From positions 1-35,313 of the forward strand of contig JAISYG010000041.1 in NCBI GenBank assembly GCA_031270075.1: DNA of 35,313 nt, written 5' to 3'. The DNA is from Dysgonamonadaceae bacterium (GTDB taxonomy: Bacteria > Bacteroidota > Bacteroidia > Bacteroidales > Azobacteroidaceae). The notes beneath the pieces are model-generated. The model did not search any database, had not been told where the DNA came from, and was given only the letters and a program-made list of their open reading frames with translations. The first letter of the stretch is position 1. Every line of letters starts with the position of its first letter. Shown here piece by piece: positions 3 through 11,016 of the stretch. The position numbers and the translations under genes are program-made.

Positions 3-1682
3 CCCGAAGGAAATTATTCGCTACGCGCCTACACGACTGCAATGTACGGACTTTCACACGATTTCTTTTTCAAAAAAGATATTTTTATTGCCTCGCCCGT
101 AAAAGCGGAAAACAAAGCGTACAAACATTCCGTAGCACAGCGCTTTCGCAGTAATGACGAGGTTTTACCGCCGCTTTCGGCAGAATGGAAAAACGACACG
201 TTGCGCGTTACCCGCAACAGCCGCGATACGTTGCCGCAGTATTTACTTATCCACACACGAGGCATTGTGCAGTATCTCGAAGAGTGGAAATGGGACACAA
301 AGACACTGCTTTTTCCGAAACAGAATTTTTCTTCGGGTGTTTTGCAGGTTGTTTTGCTGGATAACAATTACAGTCCTTTGGGTCAGAAAATGCTTCCCTG
401 CGTAAACGATGACCACGCGCATTTGAACTTTTTGGTTGAAAATAAAGACAATTTACTTCAAATCAAATTTATATTAACCGACAATCATAATAAAAACATT
501 TCCGGTAATTTTTCGGTTTCCGTTACCGACGACAACCTGACCCTGATTGACACAACGAAGAACATACGGGATTATTTGCTGTTTCACTCCGATTTTGTTA
601 CGGACGAAACATGGAAACGCTACAATATTCCGCAAATAATCAAAGGAAAAATGGACAAGTTGCCCGGTTTTATCGAATGGGGACAGGCGGTTTCGGGAAA
701 AGTAAAAAATATCGGGAACAAAAAAGCCGTTCCCGATGCGCAGGTAAATATTCTGTCGCTGCAAACAATGTACGCCACCTCCACAACAACCGACAAGAAC
801 GGAATTTTTTCTTTTAATGGAATGGACTTCCCCGACAAAACGGAGTTTGTGGTACAGGCATACAAAGCCAAAGGCAAAAACAACGTCGCGCTGACAATTG
901 ACGAGGATAATTTTCCCACTGTCGATTCCATTGATTGGCCTGTTCGGATTGATTCGACAATTATTGAGCAAGCGAAGCAATACAACCGTATGTACGACAA
1001 CATCAAAACCATTCAACTTGCTGAAGTGGTTATTAAAGGCAAAAAAACAAAAAAGCCGGCCAATCCCTATGCTGCAATGGCAGATATTTCTTTCGACAGC
1101 GAAAAAATAAGCAACCTGAATGCCACCTGCGTGCACGAACTTTTGCGGCGAATTGCCGGCTTGCAAGTGATAGGCGATAATGTGATAATCAGAGGTGCAT
1201 CCAGTATTTATGGCAAATCATTCGCAGCCATTGCCGTGGATGGCGTTATTTTGGAATCAATGAACGAAGACGGCACGGCAACGTCCCAATTCGACCTTGA
1301 TGTAATCGATTTGTTTAATGTGGAACGGGTTGATATTTTCAAAAGCGGCAACAGCGTGATTTGGGGCGCACGCGGCGGAAACGGCGTCATTTCATTTACT
1401 ACCAAAAAAGGAAATTTCGATTACTCAAAAATTGAAGAAGTACGCTATAATACAAAGGTAATCAAACCGTTGGGATATGTCCTTCCGGCAAAATTCAGTC
1501 AGCAGGCGCATAGCCCCCTGATTTATTGGAATCCGAATGTGAATACCGACGAAACAGGCGAAACTTCCATTGCGTTTTCAATACCCGCAACAAAAGGATA
1601 TTATTCTGTTATTGTTCAGGGTGTTACAAATGACGGCTTAATTATTTACAAAGCCGGAGAAATCGTTTGTAAGGATTTGTAG
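3..1682 (+). CDS. TonB plug / carboxypeptidase-regulatory domain protein (5' partial)
   Basis: The reading frame is open from base 3, upstream of the first ATG at 42, and the added residues (PEGNYSLRAYT) are typical of this family, so the gene enters the window already in progress. Order of parts: an MG2-like beta region; a carboxypeptidase-regulatory-like beta sandwich around residues 220-290 of the visible part (SGKVKN...VPDAQVNI...DKNGIFSF); a TonB-receptor plug-like domain around 360-465 (LQVIGDNVIIRG, GARGGNGVISF); and a C-terminal beta domain (PLIYWNPNVNTDETGETS). No outer-membrane barrel follows the plug; the frame ends at TAG 1680. Such barrel-less plug proteins are common in Bacteroidota and are presumably periplasmic or surface associated, but their substrate is unknown. 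Family assignment is firm, function is not. Confidence 0.85.
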   Translation, partial: PEGNYSLRAYTTAMYGLSHDFFFKKDIFIASPVKAENKAYKHSVAQRFRSNDEVLPPLSAEWKNDTLRVTRNSRDTLPQYLLIHTRGIVQYLEEWKWDTKTLLFPKQNFSSGVLQVVLLDNNYSPLGQKMLPCVNDDHAHLNFLVENKDNLLQIKFILTDNHNKNISGNFSVSVTDDNLTLIDTTKNIRDYLLFHSDFVTDETWKRYNIPQIIKGKMDKLPGFIEWGQAVSGKVKNIGNKKAVPDAQVNILSLQTMYATSTTTDKNGIFSFNGMDFPDKTEFVVQAYKAKGKNNVALTIDEDNFPTVDSIDWPVRIDSTIIEQAKQYNRMYDNIKTIQLAEVVIKGKKTKKPANPYAAMADISFDSEKISNLNATCVHELLRRIAGLQVIGDNVIIRGASSIYGKSFAAIAVDGVILESMNEDGTATSQFDLDVIDLFNVERVDIFKSGNSVIWGARGGNGVISFTTKKGNFDYSKIEEVRYNTKVIKPLGYVLPAKFSQQAHSPLIYWNPNVNTDETGETSIAFSIPATKGYYSVIVQGVTNDGLIIYKAGEIVCKDL

Positions 1683-7591: not shown

Positions 7592-7675
7592 TATAGTGGT
7601 CTTTTTGCACCGAAGGCACTTGGGGCGAAAATCAATGCAATAAGATTTTTCTTAAAAAAGCAATCACCCAAACCC

Positions 7676-7706
7676 ATTGTTAATTCAAAATAAAGTTGTA
7701 TTTTTG
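7676..7706 (+). promoter_or_regulatory. Promoter of the AbiF leader/gene
   Basis: ATTG at 7676-7679 (three of four matches to TTTG), 19-bp spacer, TATTTTTG at 7699-7706. It predicts a transcript starting near 7713, leaving about 100 nt of leader before the ATG at 7811. Confidence 0.6.
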
Positions 7707-7810
7707 TCGCTGTAATAATTGCAAACAATGGGCTTCGCCCCGCGTTAAAGATAACAACACCCGTTGCGCTTCCCGTAAGAACAGCCAGCGGGTTATTTTT
7801 TTTCTAAAAA
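7707..7810 (+). ncRNA. Candidate structured leader RNA upstream of the AbiF gene
   Basis: Between the promoter and the ATG lie several small self-complementary elements: ATTG/CAAT (7718-7729), GGGC-TTC-GCCC (7730-7740) and CAAC-ACCC-GTTG (7755-7766). A larger pairing joins CCCG near 7760-7763 and ATAA at 7751-7754 with CGGGTTAT (7789-7796). It runs directly into a U-run (7796-7803), a terminator-like end seven bases before the start codon. Abi_2/AbiF HEPN proteins are reported to be accompanied by non-coding RNAs that act as antitoxins, so an independent RNA is plausible. The fold is drawn by eye and its boundaries are uncertain. Confidence 0.4.
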
Positions 7811-8710
7811 ATGCCTGTAAATCAAGATTCAAGAACAATCGCAGAACAAATCGCCCTGCTCAAGTCGAGAGGAATGTTGCTGAAAGACGAACAAAAGGCG
7901 GCTTTTTACTTGAATCATATCAGTTATTTCCGCCTCAAAAGTTATTGGCGCGATATGCAACCCGACTGCACAAATCACATTTTTGCGCCAAACTCTTGCT
8001 TTGAAGATGTTATCGCTCGTTACAATTTTGACCGTCAGTTGCGCTTAATCCTCTTTGATGCAATAGAATTTATCGAAATTGCCCTGCGTACCAAACTCAT
8101 TTATCATTTGTCGCAGTCGTATGGCGGGCTTTGGTATTTAAACGATAACCTTGTGATAGACAATGAAAAATACGCAGAACTATTAGCCGATTTGCAAAAC
8201 GAGTTTGCCCGCAGTGGTGAAGATTTTGCAAAAGATTTTCGGCGCAAACATCCCACCGATACGCCCGATGTTTGGTTGATTTTAGAAGTTGCTACTTTTG
8301 GAACGCTCTCAAAAATATACAACAATCTGCAACACCAACTCCCTGCCAAGTCAGCAATAGCCAACGAGTTCGGGTTAAATTCCGTCAATGATTTGATAAG
8401 TTGGTTAGCCGCCATTTCTTACATGCGCAATGTTATTGCCCACCATTCACGTATCTTTGGGCGCGACATTTTGAAACGCCCCATTATGCCTCGCAGTCCA
8501 CGCAATCAGTGGTTGCAGTACAAAGTAACGCCTGTGCAGGAAAAGAAACCCTTTGTCGTAATTTCCACTATGGTTTATCTTTGCAACGCCATAAATCCCG
8601 ACAACGAAATTAAAAACAAGTTGCTTGCACTGTTCGCCGCCTACCCCGAAATACCGATTTATAAAATGGGCTTTTTCAATAATTGGCAACACGAGCCGCT
8701 TTGGAAATAA
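7811..8710 (+). CDS. AbiF/AbiD-type abortive-infection HEPN protein (Abi_2 family)
   Basis: 299 aa matching the Abi_2 family throughout. The N-terminus (LLKSRGMLLKDEQKAAFYL, HISYFRLKSYW) and FDRQLRLILFDAIEFIEIAL are hallmark segments. Near the C-terminus SYMRNVIAHH contains an R-x4-H motif (Arg206, His211), the catalytic signature of HEPN ribonucleases. The family causes abortive infection of phages, presumably by RNA cleavage, and is regarded as related to the ancestors of Cas13. The gene stands alone with its own promoter, is flanked by minus-strand genes, and its stop abuts a decayed frame, which suggests acquisition as a defence cassette. Family is sure; the RNA target and control are inferred. 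Confidence 0.92.
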   Translation: MPVNQDSRTIAEQIALLKSRGMLLKDEQKAAFYLNHISYFRLKSYWRDMQPDCTNHIFAPNSCFEDVIARYNFDRQLRLILFDAIEFIEIALRTKLIYHLSQSYGGLWYLNDNLVIDNEKYAELLADLQNEFARSGEDFAKDFRRKHPTDTPDVWLILEVATFGTLSKIYNNLQHQLPAKSAIANEFGLNSVNDLISWLAAISYMRNVIAHHSRIFGRDILKRPIMPRSPRNQWLQYKVTPVQEKKPFVVISTMVYLCNAINPDNEIKNKLLALFAAYPEIPIYKMGFFNNWQHEPLWK

Positions 8711-9052
8711 TTTTTTCAAATTAACGAATGTGCCTACATAACCGCCACTTCCGGCAATGCTCAGATCTACACCCGAATTGGTTACATTTCCTTTTACTAT
8801 GCCCACTTTGACGGTTTCTCCCTATTCAAATTTATCTTTATCCATATTGTAACTTGCATCGAATGACCCAGAACCACCTGTTCCCTTTATTTCAATGTTA
8901 AACCGCAAAAACAGTTCTGCACCCACAGTGGTTCTGCTTTTGTCTGTTTGGAATTGCAGTGATTGGTTTTCCGAAGAATATACAAGCACAGGCACTCCGA
9001 CACTTTCTCTGTCATAGATGGTAGCGCCTAATTTATACCATTGTTCAATTCG
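8711..9052 (-). pseudogene. Decayed ORF fragment downstream of the lipase gene
   Basis: On the minus strand one frame reads from 9052 to 8711 as protein-like sequence (IEQWYKLGATIYDRES, then VGAELFLRFNIEIKG), broken only by a TAG at 8824-8822. It continues after the stop (GETVKVGIVKGNV, LSIAGSGGYVG) to the end of the AbiF gene. There is no start codon: in this frame a stop lies within the lipase 3' end and no ATG follows. It is probably a remnant of the fourth gene of the lipase operon, truncated when the AbiF cassette arrived. I do not recognise the family. This fills the otherwise gene-free 344 bp. Confidence 0.5.
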
Positions 9053-9054
9053 CT

Positions 9055-11016
9055 TTATTTTGTATTGATAAGCAAATTAGAATATGTATTATTATTTCTC
9101 AACACCAATTGAACATTATTGTAGCCTTCCCATCTTACCTGACTTTCGCCATATATGGAACGAAGATGCTGTTCCGTGTGCGGCATACGGTGTCCGTCAA
9201 GCATGGCAACCAAAGGAATACCCTTATTTATTACTGTTGCTGCTTTTGCTGTAAATTCGGAGTACGGAACTCCAAAAATAGCTGCCACATCCGCAGTTTT
9301 GGAAATAACGGACAAAGTCTTACTTTCTTCTGTTGGAGCCACGCTTCCTGTTTTGATTTTTTGTCCCAGCGGAATAAGCGTATTATAATCGCGAGTTTCA
9401 TTTTGTAATGTGGTAAGAATTTCGCCATCAGTGTAATAGGCTGTAATATTGTCAGATTTGCTTACATCTAATTTATACTTGTCCACTGTTCCCTGACTTA
9501 TGTCTGCCTGATTGTATGTATAAGTCGGGAAACCTGTTTTAAGTCCGGCAACCGTAGCCAGTCCGCCGCCCAGCGAATGCCCGACAATATTTATTTTTTC
9601 TTTACAATCACTTAACATTTGACCGATTATAGCTGCATTTGCATATTGTGGGTTTAATATGGAAAATCCTTGCATAGCATTATTTACCCAATCATTAATA
9701 TCTGATAGATTATTCAGATTGCTACCTCTAAAAGCAAGCGTATATTCCCCCGTCAGTTCATTTTTATACATTTGTGCATAAAATCCGCTGCCGTCTTCAT
9801 TAAACCTGTTTATTGCGTCTATCGTCTGCGCAATCGTTTTATCCTCTATTCCCCACGAAGATGTAAGCGGATGCCAGTCTGTATCTTTTAATCCTTTTGA
9901 ACCCGGTTCATAAATATCATTTGCCATAATTGCATTATCTATCAGTCTTTTTTCAGGATTGGGATTTTTCTTTGCTTCGTTTGCCTGATAATCTAGTTCA
10001 ATCGCCATTTGTTTTACAAAATGATTGTAATCTTCTGCAATTTCACGTTCTTCATCTGTTAAGTTTTTCCTGTTTCGCAAATCTTCAATATCAAAACCCG
10101 TTCGTTCCCTGTATAAATCGCGCAACAGTTGCGGAATACTGCTTGTTCTGTTTTCCAAAAATGCCTGAATGGAGATGGCAACTTCATTTCTGAATCTCAG
10201 GTCGATAGCAATTTCTTTTTTAATGGCGTCGAATTTATTTATCGTATAGTCTGATTCTTCTATTTCAACTGGCGTTTGCCAGTCCGATTTCCAGTTTGGA
10301 TTTCCGACGCGAATACCGCTGCCCGTGTATGCGCCGATATTGTCAAAATTTACACTCACCTCCTGTGTTGCATCTGTGTTTGTCCGAATTGAAGTGCGGG
10401 CGGAAGGCGCATCAAAGATATTCTCGTACTGTGTTTGCGGGTTATCGGCAAAGAGCGAATTTGATGGGCTGTCTTTATCGGTTTCGCCAACTGCCGGCGT
10501 GAATAAATCACCATAGCCTGAATCGCCGGACTTTGCATTGGAAGTGTAATGGGGGTTATTTTCACTCCGGCACGCACATTGATGTTCTACCGACGCGAGT
10601 AATTCCTGCCTGTTTTTAGCGTCAGTTTCAGCCTTTTTTGTTCTAGTTTTGGCGTCGGCTTCGGCCTTTTTTCTAAGTAATACATTTTCAAGGTGATCTC
10701 TGCCTTTTGTCGCCGGTTGTTTCATTTCGTCGCTATTGGAAGAGGGAAGCATTTGACTTACAATGTTTTTTAACTGTTGTTTTTCGTTTTCACATTCGCT
10801 GCTACTGAGAAATGTCGCCACTTTTGCACCGCGCAAATACAATACATGTACAGTCCGGTTTTGCGGTGCGGTTGCATTACGTGTAGCCGTGTTCCAAGCA
10901 TTGCTGCGTTGCGATTTCACCTGTGTTTCCCATTTTTGCAGAAAGGCATTGTTTTGCGCCGATGATCCGACAGCGCAAAACAAACTGCCTGCAAGTAACA
11001 CTATTTTCGTTTGCAT
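9055..11016 (-). CDS. Secreted class-3-type lipase / alpha-beta hydrolase
   Basis: 653 aa. Signal peptide at residues 1-20 (LLAGSLFCAVGSSAQ). Residues 20-340 are low in recognisable domains, with a charged helical repeat at 110-140 (KKAEADAKTRTKKAETDAK). The C-terminal half is a lipase fold: LAFRGSN near 430 (oxyanion-side strand), the nucleophile elbow GHSLGGG with Ser481, a likely acid in YYTDGEI (Asp530), and His609 or His613 in DGHRMPH. Substrate is probably a lipid ester, but this is inferred from the fold only. It is the last intact gene of a three-gene minus-strand operon, 4 bp after the TPR gene. The long N-terminal extension makes it much larger than a simple lipase. Confidence 0.8.
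   Translation of the reverse strand: MQTKIVLLAGSLFCAVGSSAQNNAFLQKWETQVKSQRSNAWNTATRNATAPQNRTVHVLYLRGAKVATFLSSSECENEKQQLKNIVSQMLPSSNSDEMKQPATKGRDHLENVLLRKKAEADAKTRTKKAETDAKNRQELLASVEHQCACRSENNPHYTSNAKSGDSGYGDLFTPAVGETDKDSPSNSLFADNPQTQYENIFDAPSARTSIRTNTDATQEVSVNFDNIGAYTGSGIRVGNPNWKSDWQTPVEIEESDYTINKFDAIKKEIAIDLRFRNEVAISIQAFLENRTSSIPQLLRDLYRERTGFDIEDLRNRKNLTDEEREIAEDYNHFVKQMAIELDYQANEAKKNPNPEKRLIDNAIMANDIYEPGSKGLKDTDWHPLTSSWGIEDKTIAQTIDAINRFNEDGSGFYAQMYKNELTGEYTLAFRGSNLNNLSDINDWVNNAMQGFSILNPQYANAAIIGQMLSDCKEKINIVGHSLGGGLATVAGLKTGFPTYTYNQADISQGTVDKYKLDVSKSDNITAYYTDGEILTTLQNETRDYNTLIPLGQKIKTGSVAPTEESKTLSVISKTADVAAIFGVPYSEFTAKAATVINKGIPLVAMLDGHRMPHTEQHLRSIYGESQVRWEGYNNVQLVLRNNNTYSNLLINTK

What the first reader, a model, noticed from the sequence alone, without database searches (positions are those of the whole stretch)
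7676..8710. AbiF-type HEPN nuclease behind its own promoter, a structured leader and a U-run
The Abi_2 protein keeps its R-x4-H HEPN motif (Arg206/His211). Upstream lie, in order, a promoter, about 100 nt with several self-complementary segments, and a hairpin leading into eight T just before the ATG. That is the order expected of an RNA antitoxin followed by a leaky terminator and its toxin, and AbiF-like HEPN proteins with accompanying RNAs are thought to be close to the origin of Cas13. This copy has no nearby phage or transposase genes.
Basis: partly seen in the sequence, partly recalled or inferred. Interest (0 to 1): 0.72.

Follow-up and report, generated by a model that had tools for sequence, protein, structure and literature searches.

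The report
AbiF toxin with its RNA antitoxin
A bacterial self-poisoning enzyme is preceded by a small folded RNA that most likely keeps it switched off, and look-alike RNAs without the enzyme turn up in phage genomes, as if phages carried the antidote.

Summary
ORF 7811-8710 is an Abi_2/AbiF HEPN protein (Arg206/His211 invariant in 49 of 49 aligned sequences; its model matches PbAbiF-ncRNA 8vz6, TM 0.92). Upstream are a Bacteroidetes-type promoter (7677-7706), a 5' hairpin, and a covarying hairpin (7759-7793) running into U8. A covariance model built without the window's clade finds this hairpin at 7749-7803, and one upstream of the (intact or broken) Abi_2 gene in all 34 other held-out loci.

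The system is a known kind (AbiF/AbiFr; C. difficile RCd22). The RNA is a variant: no 3' bulge, unmatched by Rfam RF03085, confined to one toxin clade.

The most novel lead lies outside the window: viral contigs and cultivated phages carry solitary AbiF-type RNAs, some bulge-less, with no Abi_2 gene in 49 of 50 chosen contigs (many are fragments) and 5 of 5 named phage genomes. I read them as phage mimics of the antitoxin, like Racr anti-CRISPRs and pseudo-ToxI; this is untested.

The parts
7677..7706 (+). promoter: TTG (7677-7679), 19-nt spacer, TATTTTTG (7699-7706)
   Evidence: sequence; TAnnTTTG upstream of the hairpin in 36 of 61 loci against 85 of 1220 random windows, 29 of 61 with TTG 17-23 nt further up; of the 12 window-clade loci 9 have it 47-54 nt from the stem, 2 have it 10 nt away, 1 lacks it
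7711..7803 (+). predicted RNA antitoxin, about 93 nt (start inferred from the promoter, end from the U-run)
   Evidence: inference; no transcript data
7730..7740 (+). 5' hairpin GGGC-UUC-GCCC, found in window, L002-L008 and, with unrelated sequence, L039; no room for it in L040 and L042; L041 unclear
   Evidence: covariation is weak (1 pair changed on both sides, in 3 of 8 sequences)
7759..7793 (+). core AbiF-type hairpin: outer 8 bp (7759-7766/7786-7793), 1-nt 5' bulge (7767), inner 3 bp (7768-7770/7783-7785), loop 7771-7782, no 3' bulge; doubles as terminator stem
7796..7803 (+). run of eight T after the hairpin
7811..8710 (+). abiF toxin gene, Abi_2 family HEPN RNase, 299 aa
8426..8443 (+). 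codons of the HEPN motif R206-N-V-I-A-H211

Best explanation
A chromosomal AbiF toxin with a cis-encoded RNA antitoxin. From one promoter RNA polymerase makes a roughly 93-nt RNA: a 5' hairpin, a short linker and a core hairpin that is both antitoxin fold and intrinsic terminator. Most transcripts stop at U8 and yield free antitoxin; a minority read through and give toxin mRNA. The AbiF dimer binds the core hairpin and its R-x4-H RNase site is held off; when antitoxin supply falls (for example when a phage disturbs transcription) free AbiF cuts RNA and stops growth. Shown here: gene, motif, fold, conserved covarying hairpin, promoter, U-run, shared inheritance of RNA type and toxin clade. Inferred from studied relatives: RNA length and abundance, dimer, binding, neutralisation, RNase toxicity, phage defence.
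For: Abi_2; model pLDDT 95 against 8vz6 'PbAbiF dimer bound to ncRNA', TM 0.92. Covariation: general class, 25 distinct RNAs, 7 of 11 pairs changed on both sides, score 0.463 against 0.219 shuffled (0 of 500); bulge-less class, 12 RNAs, 5 of 11, 0.343 against 0.153 (0 of 500). R1, built without the window clade, hits 35 of 35 held-out sources at E <= 0.0021, window 35.6 bits. Of 49 R1 hits of at least 40 bits in 393 genomes, 34 have an Abi_2 hit within 700 nt downstream on the same strand (two of the 34, L017 and L035, were in R1's training set). RNA type follows toxin clade: one change on the tree, clade support 100/99. In C. difficile RCd22 terminates before abiF, binds AbiF and neutralises it in cis and trans (PMC12373285).
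Against: No transcript, binding or toxicity data for this copy. Fold of the window RNA alone is weakly better than shuffles. No Rfam abiF match, even at E <= 10 on 301 bases. 15 of the 49 strong RNA hits lack a toxin hit downstream, so RNA and toxin are not inseparable. L002 (an inner pair) and L008 (outer stem) have broken pairs.
Confidence: 0.9

Rival explanations
1. The leader is only a cis attenuator/terminator that sets toxin expression and does not act as an RNA antitoxin on the protein.
For: The hairpin ends in U8 directly before the ATG; in C. difficile the cis effect is strong (PMC12373285).
Against: The loop (mostly CCCRUAAGAAC in the window clade) and the inner stem are conserved across distant homologues, which a terminator does not need. 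Copies with the same loop occur with no toxin behind. A relative acts in trans (PMC12373285).
Confidence: 0.07
2. A structured leader sensing a ligand or stress (riboswitch-like) that controls a house-keeping HEPN RNase.
For: The C. difficile authors speculate on stimulus-driven readthrough (PMC12373285, Discussion).
Against: Patchy presence argues against house-keeping: 16 of 45 genomes of the family have any match, many of them distant or partial, and 58 of 393 of the order. Partner genes were not examined systematically.
Confidence: 0.02
3. Decaying remnant: the pair no longer works.
For: Close relatives are broken (L008, L140, L141).
Against: In the window the frame is full length, the motif intact and the RNA pairs complete.
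Confidence: 0.03

Closest known systems
PbAbiF-AbiFr (Prevotellaceae; PDB 8vz6; Zilberzwige-Tal et al. 2025, known here only through PMC12373285 and PMC12737573)
   Same: Protein family and fold (TM 0.92), HEPN motif, ncRNA partner
   Different: 31% identity in the structural alignment. PbAbiF is 88% identical to L063, whose RNA is RF03085 with a 6-nt 3' bulge. The review places the inhibitory nucleotides C32 and U38 in a single-stranded bulge; by my count on L063, with an assumed transcript start, they lie in or next to the 3' bulge, which the window RNA lacks (inference)
AbiF-Cd / RCd22 of C. difficile phi027
   Same: Promoter, RNA of about 100 nt, terminator, toxin; HEPN R202/H207
   Different: RCd22 has two abiF motifs and a separate terminator; the window RNA has one core hairpin that is itself the terminator, plus an unrelated 5' hairpin; not in a prophage as far as scanned
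Rfam RF03085 abiF RNA
   Same: Outer stem, inner 3-bp stem, loop, upstream of Abi_2
   Different: Different loop sequence, no 3' bulge; RF03085 at its gathering score marks the toxin-adjacent RNA in only 5 of 60 loci scanned
Racr anti-CRISPR RNAs (PMC10651486) and pseudo-ToxI of phage PhiTE (PMC3475682); abstracts and outlines seen
   Same: Phage-borne copies of an RNA that a host defence protein binds
   Different: Target would be AbiF; function of the phage AbiF-type RNAs not tested

Membership tests
Abi_2 / AbiF HEPN toxins | Abi_2 domain above Pfam cut-off | tested here: met
   180.5 bits, cut-off 25.6
Abi_2 / AbiF HEPN toxins | R-x4-H HEPN motif | tested here: met
   R206/H211, invariant in 49 of 49 aligned sequences
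Abi_2 / AbiF HEPN toxins | AbiF fold | tested here: met
   8vz6_A TM 0.92, E 1.7e-20
Abi_2 / AbiF HEPN toxins | RNase toxicity, homodimer | not testable with these tools
   needs the bench; no dimer was modelled
Type III toxin-antitoxin (AbiF kind) | RNA gene with own promoter and terminator directly upstream of toxin | tested here: met
   (sequence level only)
Type III toxin-antitoxin (AbiF kind) | RNA binds and neutralises the toxin protein | not testable with these tools
   shown for a relative (PMC12373285), not here
Type III toxin-antitoxin (AbiF kind) | repetitive antitoxin RNA (as stated for type III systems in a PMC12804078 passage) | tested here: not met
   one core hairpin in the window. 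PMC12737573 nevertheless files AbiF as type III, with one AbiFr per PbAbiF monomer
Rfam RF03085 abiF RNA | match to the family model | tested here: not met
   no match at gathering nor at E <= 10 on 7600-7900
Rfam RF03085 abiF RNA | 3' bulge of about 6 nt between inner and outer stem | tested here: not met
   0 nt in the window clade; flanking pairs covary
AbiF-type RNA superfamily as modelled in R1 | match to a model built without the window clade | tested here: met
   35.6 bits, E 8e-7; only hit in own genome at E <= 0.01
Cas13 | two HEPN domains in one protein | tested here: not met
   299 aa, one Abi_2 domain
Cas13 | CRISPR array beside the gene | not tested
   no repeat search of the window was run

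The most novel reading that the evidence does not exclude
Phages of several kinds carry solitary copies of the AbiF antitoxin RNA, including the window's bulge-less form, as RNA decoys that silence host AbiF: an RNA-based counter-defence running parallel to Racr anti-CRISPRs. Toxin-less chromosomal copies may likewise immunise against incoming AbiF. Within this, the bulge-less RNA would be a second, bulge-independent way of inhibiting AbiF.
Probability: 0.55. Interest if true: 0.8.

Novelty: new variant of a known kind. Interest (0 to 1): 0.58.

Why it matters
AbiF-RNA pairs are proposed ancestors of Cas13. A clade whose antitoxin lacks the bulge in which inhibitory nucleotides appear to lie in PbAbiFr asks how AbiF is really held off, and gives a natural comparison. 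Rfam's model misses the toxin-adjacent RNA in 55 of 60 loci scanned here, so these systems are under-annotated. The solitary phage copies make the function of AbiF as phage defence directly testable: if phages keep an antidote, the toxin must matter to them.

Tried and rejected
RNAalifold on the whole upstream block paired the promoter with the linker: rejected, since the promoter is not transcribed. A generic promoter/terminator scan was uninformative. A first descriptor scan of 64 upstream regions found nothing in 6 and misplaced 4; its score is not very sharp: 46 of 64 regions reach 18 (two of them misplaced), against 40 of 1142 other windows and 4 of 630 shuffles. Cores of L010, L025, L057, L002, L004, L005 and L008 were placed by hand. 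L037 has no upstream sequence. L043 and L058 were left out of the core list but found later by R1.

An empty site was looked for with the neighbouring amidase: amidase-MlaD order is seen in 13 of 15 relatives (L073 is cut by its contig), and what lies beyond the amidase varies among the nine listed; none of the 15 holds abiF or the next window genes within the at most 1.5 kb flanks fetched. The insertion ends were not defined. Viral contigs gave no protein relative of the query. One protein and three RNA blast searches for bulge-less and general-class RNAs in named phages gave no convincing RNA hit; only RF03085-type RNAs were found there. That every hit of the loose 18-nt viral pattern is real was rejected: on the order of 150 chance matches are expected (my estimate, assuming 15 kb per contig), although 118 of 126 sites form the third inner pair, where chance gives about 6 in 16, which suggests most are real.

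Full report
What is in the window. ORF 7811-8710 (+, 299 aa) is an Abi_2 protein (PF07751, E 5e-53; PADLOC AbiD). Its nearest solved relative is PbAbiF, 8vz6 (phmmer 5e-50). An AlphaFold2 model from an alignment of 49 sequences (window and 48 homologues) has mean pLDDT 95, and Foldseek puts 8vz6_A first, TM 0.92, the only hit with E below 0.001. R206, N207, H211 and H212 are invariant in the 49. The assembly (84.7% complete) shows one Abi_2 gene.

The upstream RNA. Seven homologues of 68-93% identity (best segment), from Bacteroidales, Prevotellaceae and Bacteroidetes metagenome bins (I recall such bin names from termite-gut studies), share a block before the ATG: a TAnnTTTG box (8 of 8 with the window; TTG upstream in 7 of 8), a 5' hairpin, the linker UUAAAGAUAAC, a hairpin ACCCG...CGGGU and a T-rich run. 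Homologues turn up in 48 of 395 genomes of the phylum, 58 of 393 of the order and 16 of 45 of the family, all three counts including partial matches. Every homologue fetched with upstream sequence, 72 in all (63 with the window, 9), has a hairpin of one architecture there: outer stem of 7-8 bp as a rule, 1-nt 5' bulge, inner 3 bp with GC/GC, a loop usually of 11-14 nt, and outside the window's clade a 3' bulge of 5-7 nt. Matches not fetched were not looked at.

Tests. Model R1 was built from 25 distinct RNAs (28 loci), so without the window's clade. On 35 held-out sources (window, L002-L008, L039-L065) it hits upstream of Abi_2, intact or broken, in 35 of 35 at E <= 0.0021; the window scores 35.6 bits at 7749-7803. 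In the window's own genome it is the only hit at E <= 0.01, as is R2's at E <= 1. Covariation scores exceed 500 of 500 shuffles and every slid register: 0.463 against 0.219 for the 25 general RNAs, 0.343 against 0.153 for 12 window-clade RNAs, 0.352 against 0.131 for 19 (of the added seven some were found and the rest located with R2, so they lean towards its structure). For the 19, 25.5-41.3% of cells pair in slid registers against 96.2%. The other measures are less clear on the 12 (9 and 14 of 500 shuffles reach the numbers of pairs and types). The 5' hairpin is weakly supported: one pair changed on both sides, in 3 of 8, though L039 has an unrelated sequence that folds likewise.

How this RNA differs. 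In the window clade the 3' bulge is absent, and the pairs that close the gap covary (columns 16-18 with 38-40). On a tree of 50 proteins the nine rows with bulge-less RNA form one clade (100/99) and need one change (L007, L008 and L041 were not in the tree): RNA type and toxin are inherited together. L048 joins the RF03085-like loop to the general class's inner stem and bulge and is itself an RF03085 match, so I read all as one continuum. RF03085 at its gathering score marks the toxin-adjacent RNA in 5 of 60 loci scanned (L016, L035, L048, L062, L063), none of them window-clade; L002 has an RF03085 match further upstream besides its window-type RNA (L037, L058 and L065 not scanned). PbAbiF is 88% identical to L063, which has the RF03085 RNA. 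The review PMC12737573 (AbiF passages seen) says C32 and U38 in a single-stranded bulge inhibit PbAbiF; counting on L063, with an assumed transcript start, puts these in or next to the 3' bulge. If so, the window RNA must inhibit differently. That step is inference.

Mechanism. PMC12373285 (Results and the first part of the Discussion read) shows for C. difficile that RCd22, about 100 nt, ends before abiF, is co-transcribed by read-through, binds AbiF, and neutralises it in cis and trans, and that R202/H207 are needed for toxicity. The window has the same order of parts, with the antitoxin hairpin acting as the terminator. I take the same mechanism as most likely.

RNAs without toxin. Of 49 R1 hits of at least 40 bits in 393 genomes, 34 have an Abi_2 hit within 700 nt downstream on the same strand. 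I looked at the other 15: an HMM finds toxin remnants in L084, L104, L114 and L115; by eye also in L094 and L111; L118 faces an Abi_2 gene tail to tail; L109 precedes HEPN and nucleotidyltransferase genes; in seven (L093, L099, L108, L113, L116, L117, L119) no remnant was found within the stretch fetched. In the window's own family L140 and L141 keep the bulge-less RNA (71.0 bits each) with 33 and 30 residues of toxin.

Phage copies. At E <= 0.001 R2 matches 13 of 84 loci given and R1 16 of 32. Register control on all 126 sites of the first pattern: at least 7 of 8 outer pairs at 21 sites in the bulge-less register, 0-1 when slid by -3 to +5; the 23 at +6 are the general class's register; with no 5' bulge the same stems show up at neighbouring offsets. 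Fourteen distinct viral bulge-less cores vary widely in stem letters while still pairing (covariation score 0.649 against 0.229, or 0.522 against 0.188 for the 11 left after dropping three that look like coding matches, where the number of pair types does not exceed shuffles, 357 of 500); but these cores were chosen for at least 6 of 8 outer pairs, so this is description, and the register control is the test. Of 223 sites in 223 of the 230 viral loci, 88 have a weak outer stem and 19 too little sequence downstream; of the remaining 116, 114 show no Abi_2 and 2 have it downstream (the stem rule is lenient, 16% of random sites pass, and the HMM was trained on the homologues above). A Pfam search of 50 whole viral records, chosen from these candidates and two added for R2 matches (L201, L212), finds Abi_2 in one, L198; many records are fragments, 24 being at least 30 kb (L198 among them), and absence from a fragment proves little. 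RNAs sit right after a major head protein gene (L186, L211, L262) or within or beside tRNA genes (L212, L272, L266). Firmer are five named phages with an RF03085 match at gathering score and no Abi_2 anywhere in the record: Acj61, Thibault, PZL-Ah8, CGphi29 and S-SZBM1; L358 has Acj61's length and may be the same genome. Blastn with E up to 10 lists 75 phage records, 53 of them Mycobacterium phages, duplicates included. Of 12 viral RF03085-loop contigs scanned, Rfam confirms 10; three bulge-less viral contigs give no RF03085 match.

Reading of the phage copies. Phage RNAs that copy what a defence protein binds are known: Racrs (PMC10651486, abstract) and pseudo-ToxI (PMC3475682, abstract). An abiF sRNA in cyanophage S-CREM1 was reported by Rfam match (PMC9964418, passages); the passages I saw propose no counter-defence. 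My ten paper searches listed no paper whose title or shown abstract states it; most listed papers were not opened, the primary AbiF report of Zilberzwige-Tal et al. was not among the listings, and subscription papers are mostly not held. A terminator-only role is possible, yet the loop would not then need conserving; the pattern searches themselves select for the loop, so only the free stem letters are independent evidence. No phage RNA of the bulge-less class was found in a named phage.

Verdict. Observation confirmed, interpretation supported; a new variant of a known kind, with an unexpected and testable lead in phages.

Noticed in passing
L180, L186, L197, L201, L211, L216, L239, L262 (bulge-less); L266, L269, L276, L278 (general); L374-L378 (RF03085): Solitary AbiF-type RNAs in viral contigs and named phages with no Abi_2 gene found in the record; candidate RNA counter-defence.
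   Followed up: partly
L084, L093, L094, L099, L104, L108, L111, L113-L117, L119, L140, L141: Chromosomal AbiF-type RNAs, most with a TAnnTTTG box by eye, but with no intact toxin gene behind.
   Followed up: partly
L109, RNA 1501-1561 (-), genes 1030-1422 and 755-1051 (-): An AbiF-type RNA directly upstream of HEPN and nucleotidyltransferase genes (PF05168, PF01909), resembling a HEPN/MNT pair; chance neighbourhood or shared control is open.
   Followed up: no
L137 515-638; L002 2647-2704 and 2941-2994; L057 1159-1227 and 1404-1472: Two AbiF-type RNAs in a row, in L137 and L002 of different classes.
   Followed up: no
L008 about 3090; L140 about 1465; L141 about 1381: Three broken toxins of the window clade all lose sequence near codons 29-33 while the RNA stays; deletion hot spot or chance.
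   Followed up: no
window 7620-9055: The abiF segment lies beside an amidase-MlaD pair seen in 13 of 15 family relatives; none of the 15 has abiF within the flanks fetched.
   Followed up: partly
window 9055-11016 (-): 653-aa protein with a weak, below cut-off match to the SA1320 family and no Pfam match.
   Followed up: no
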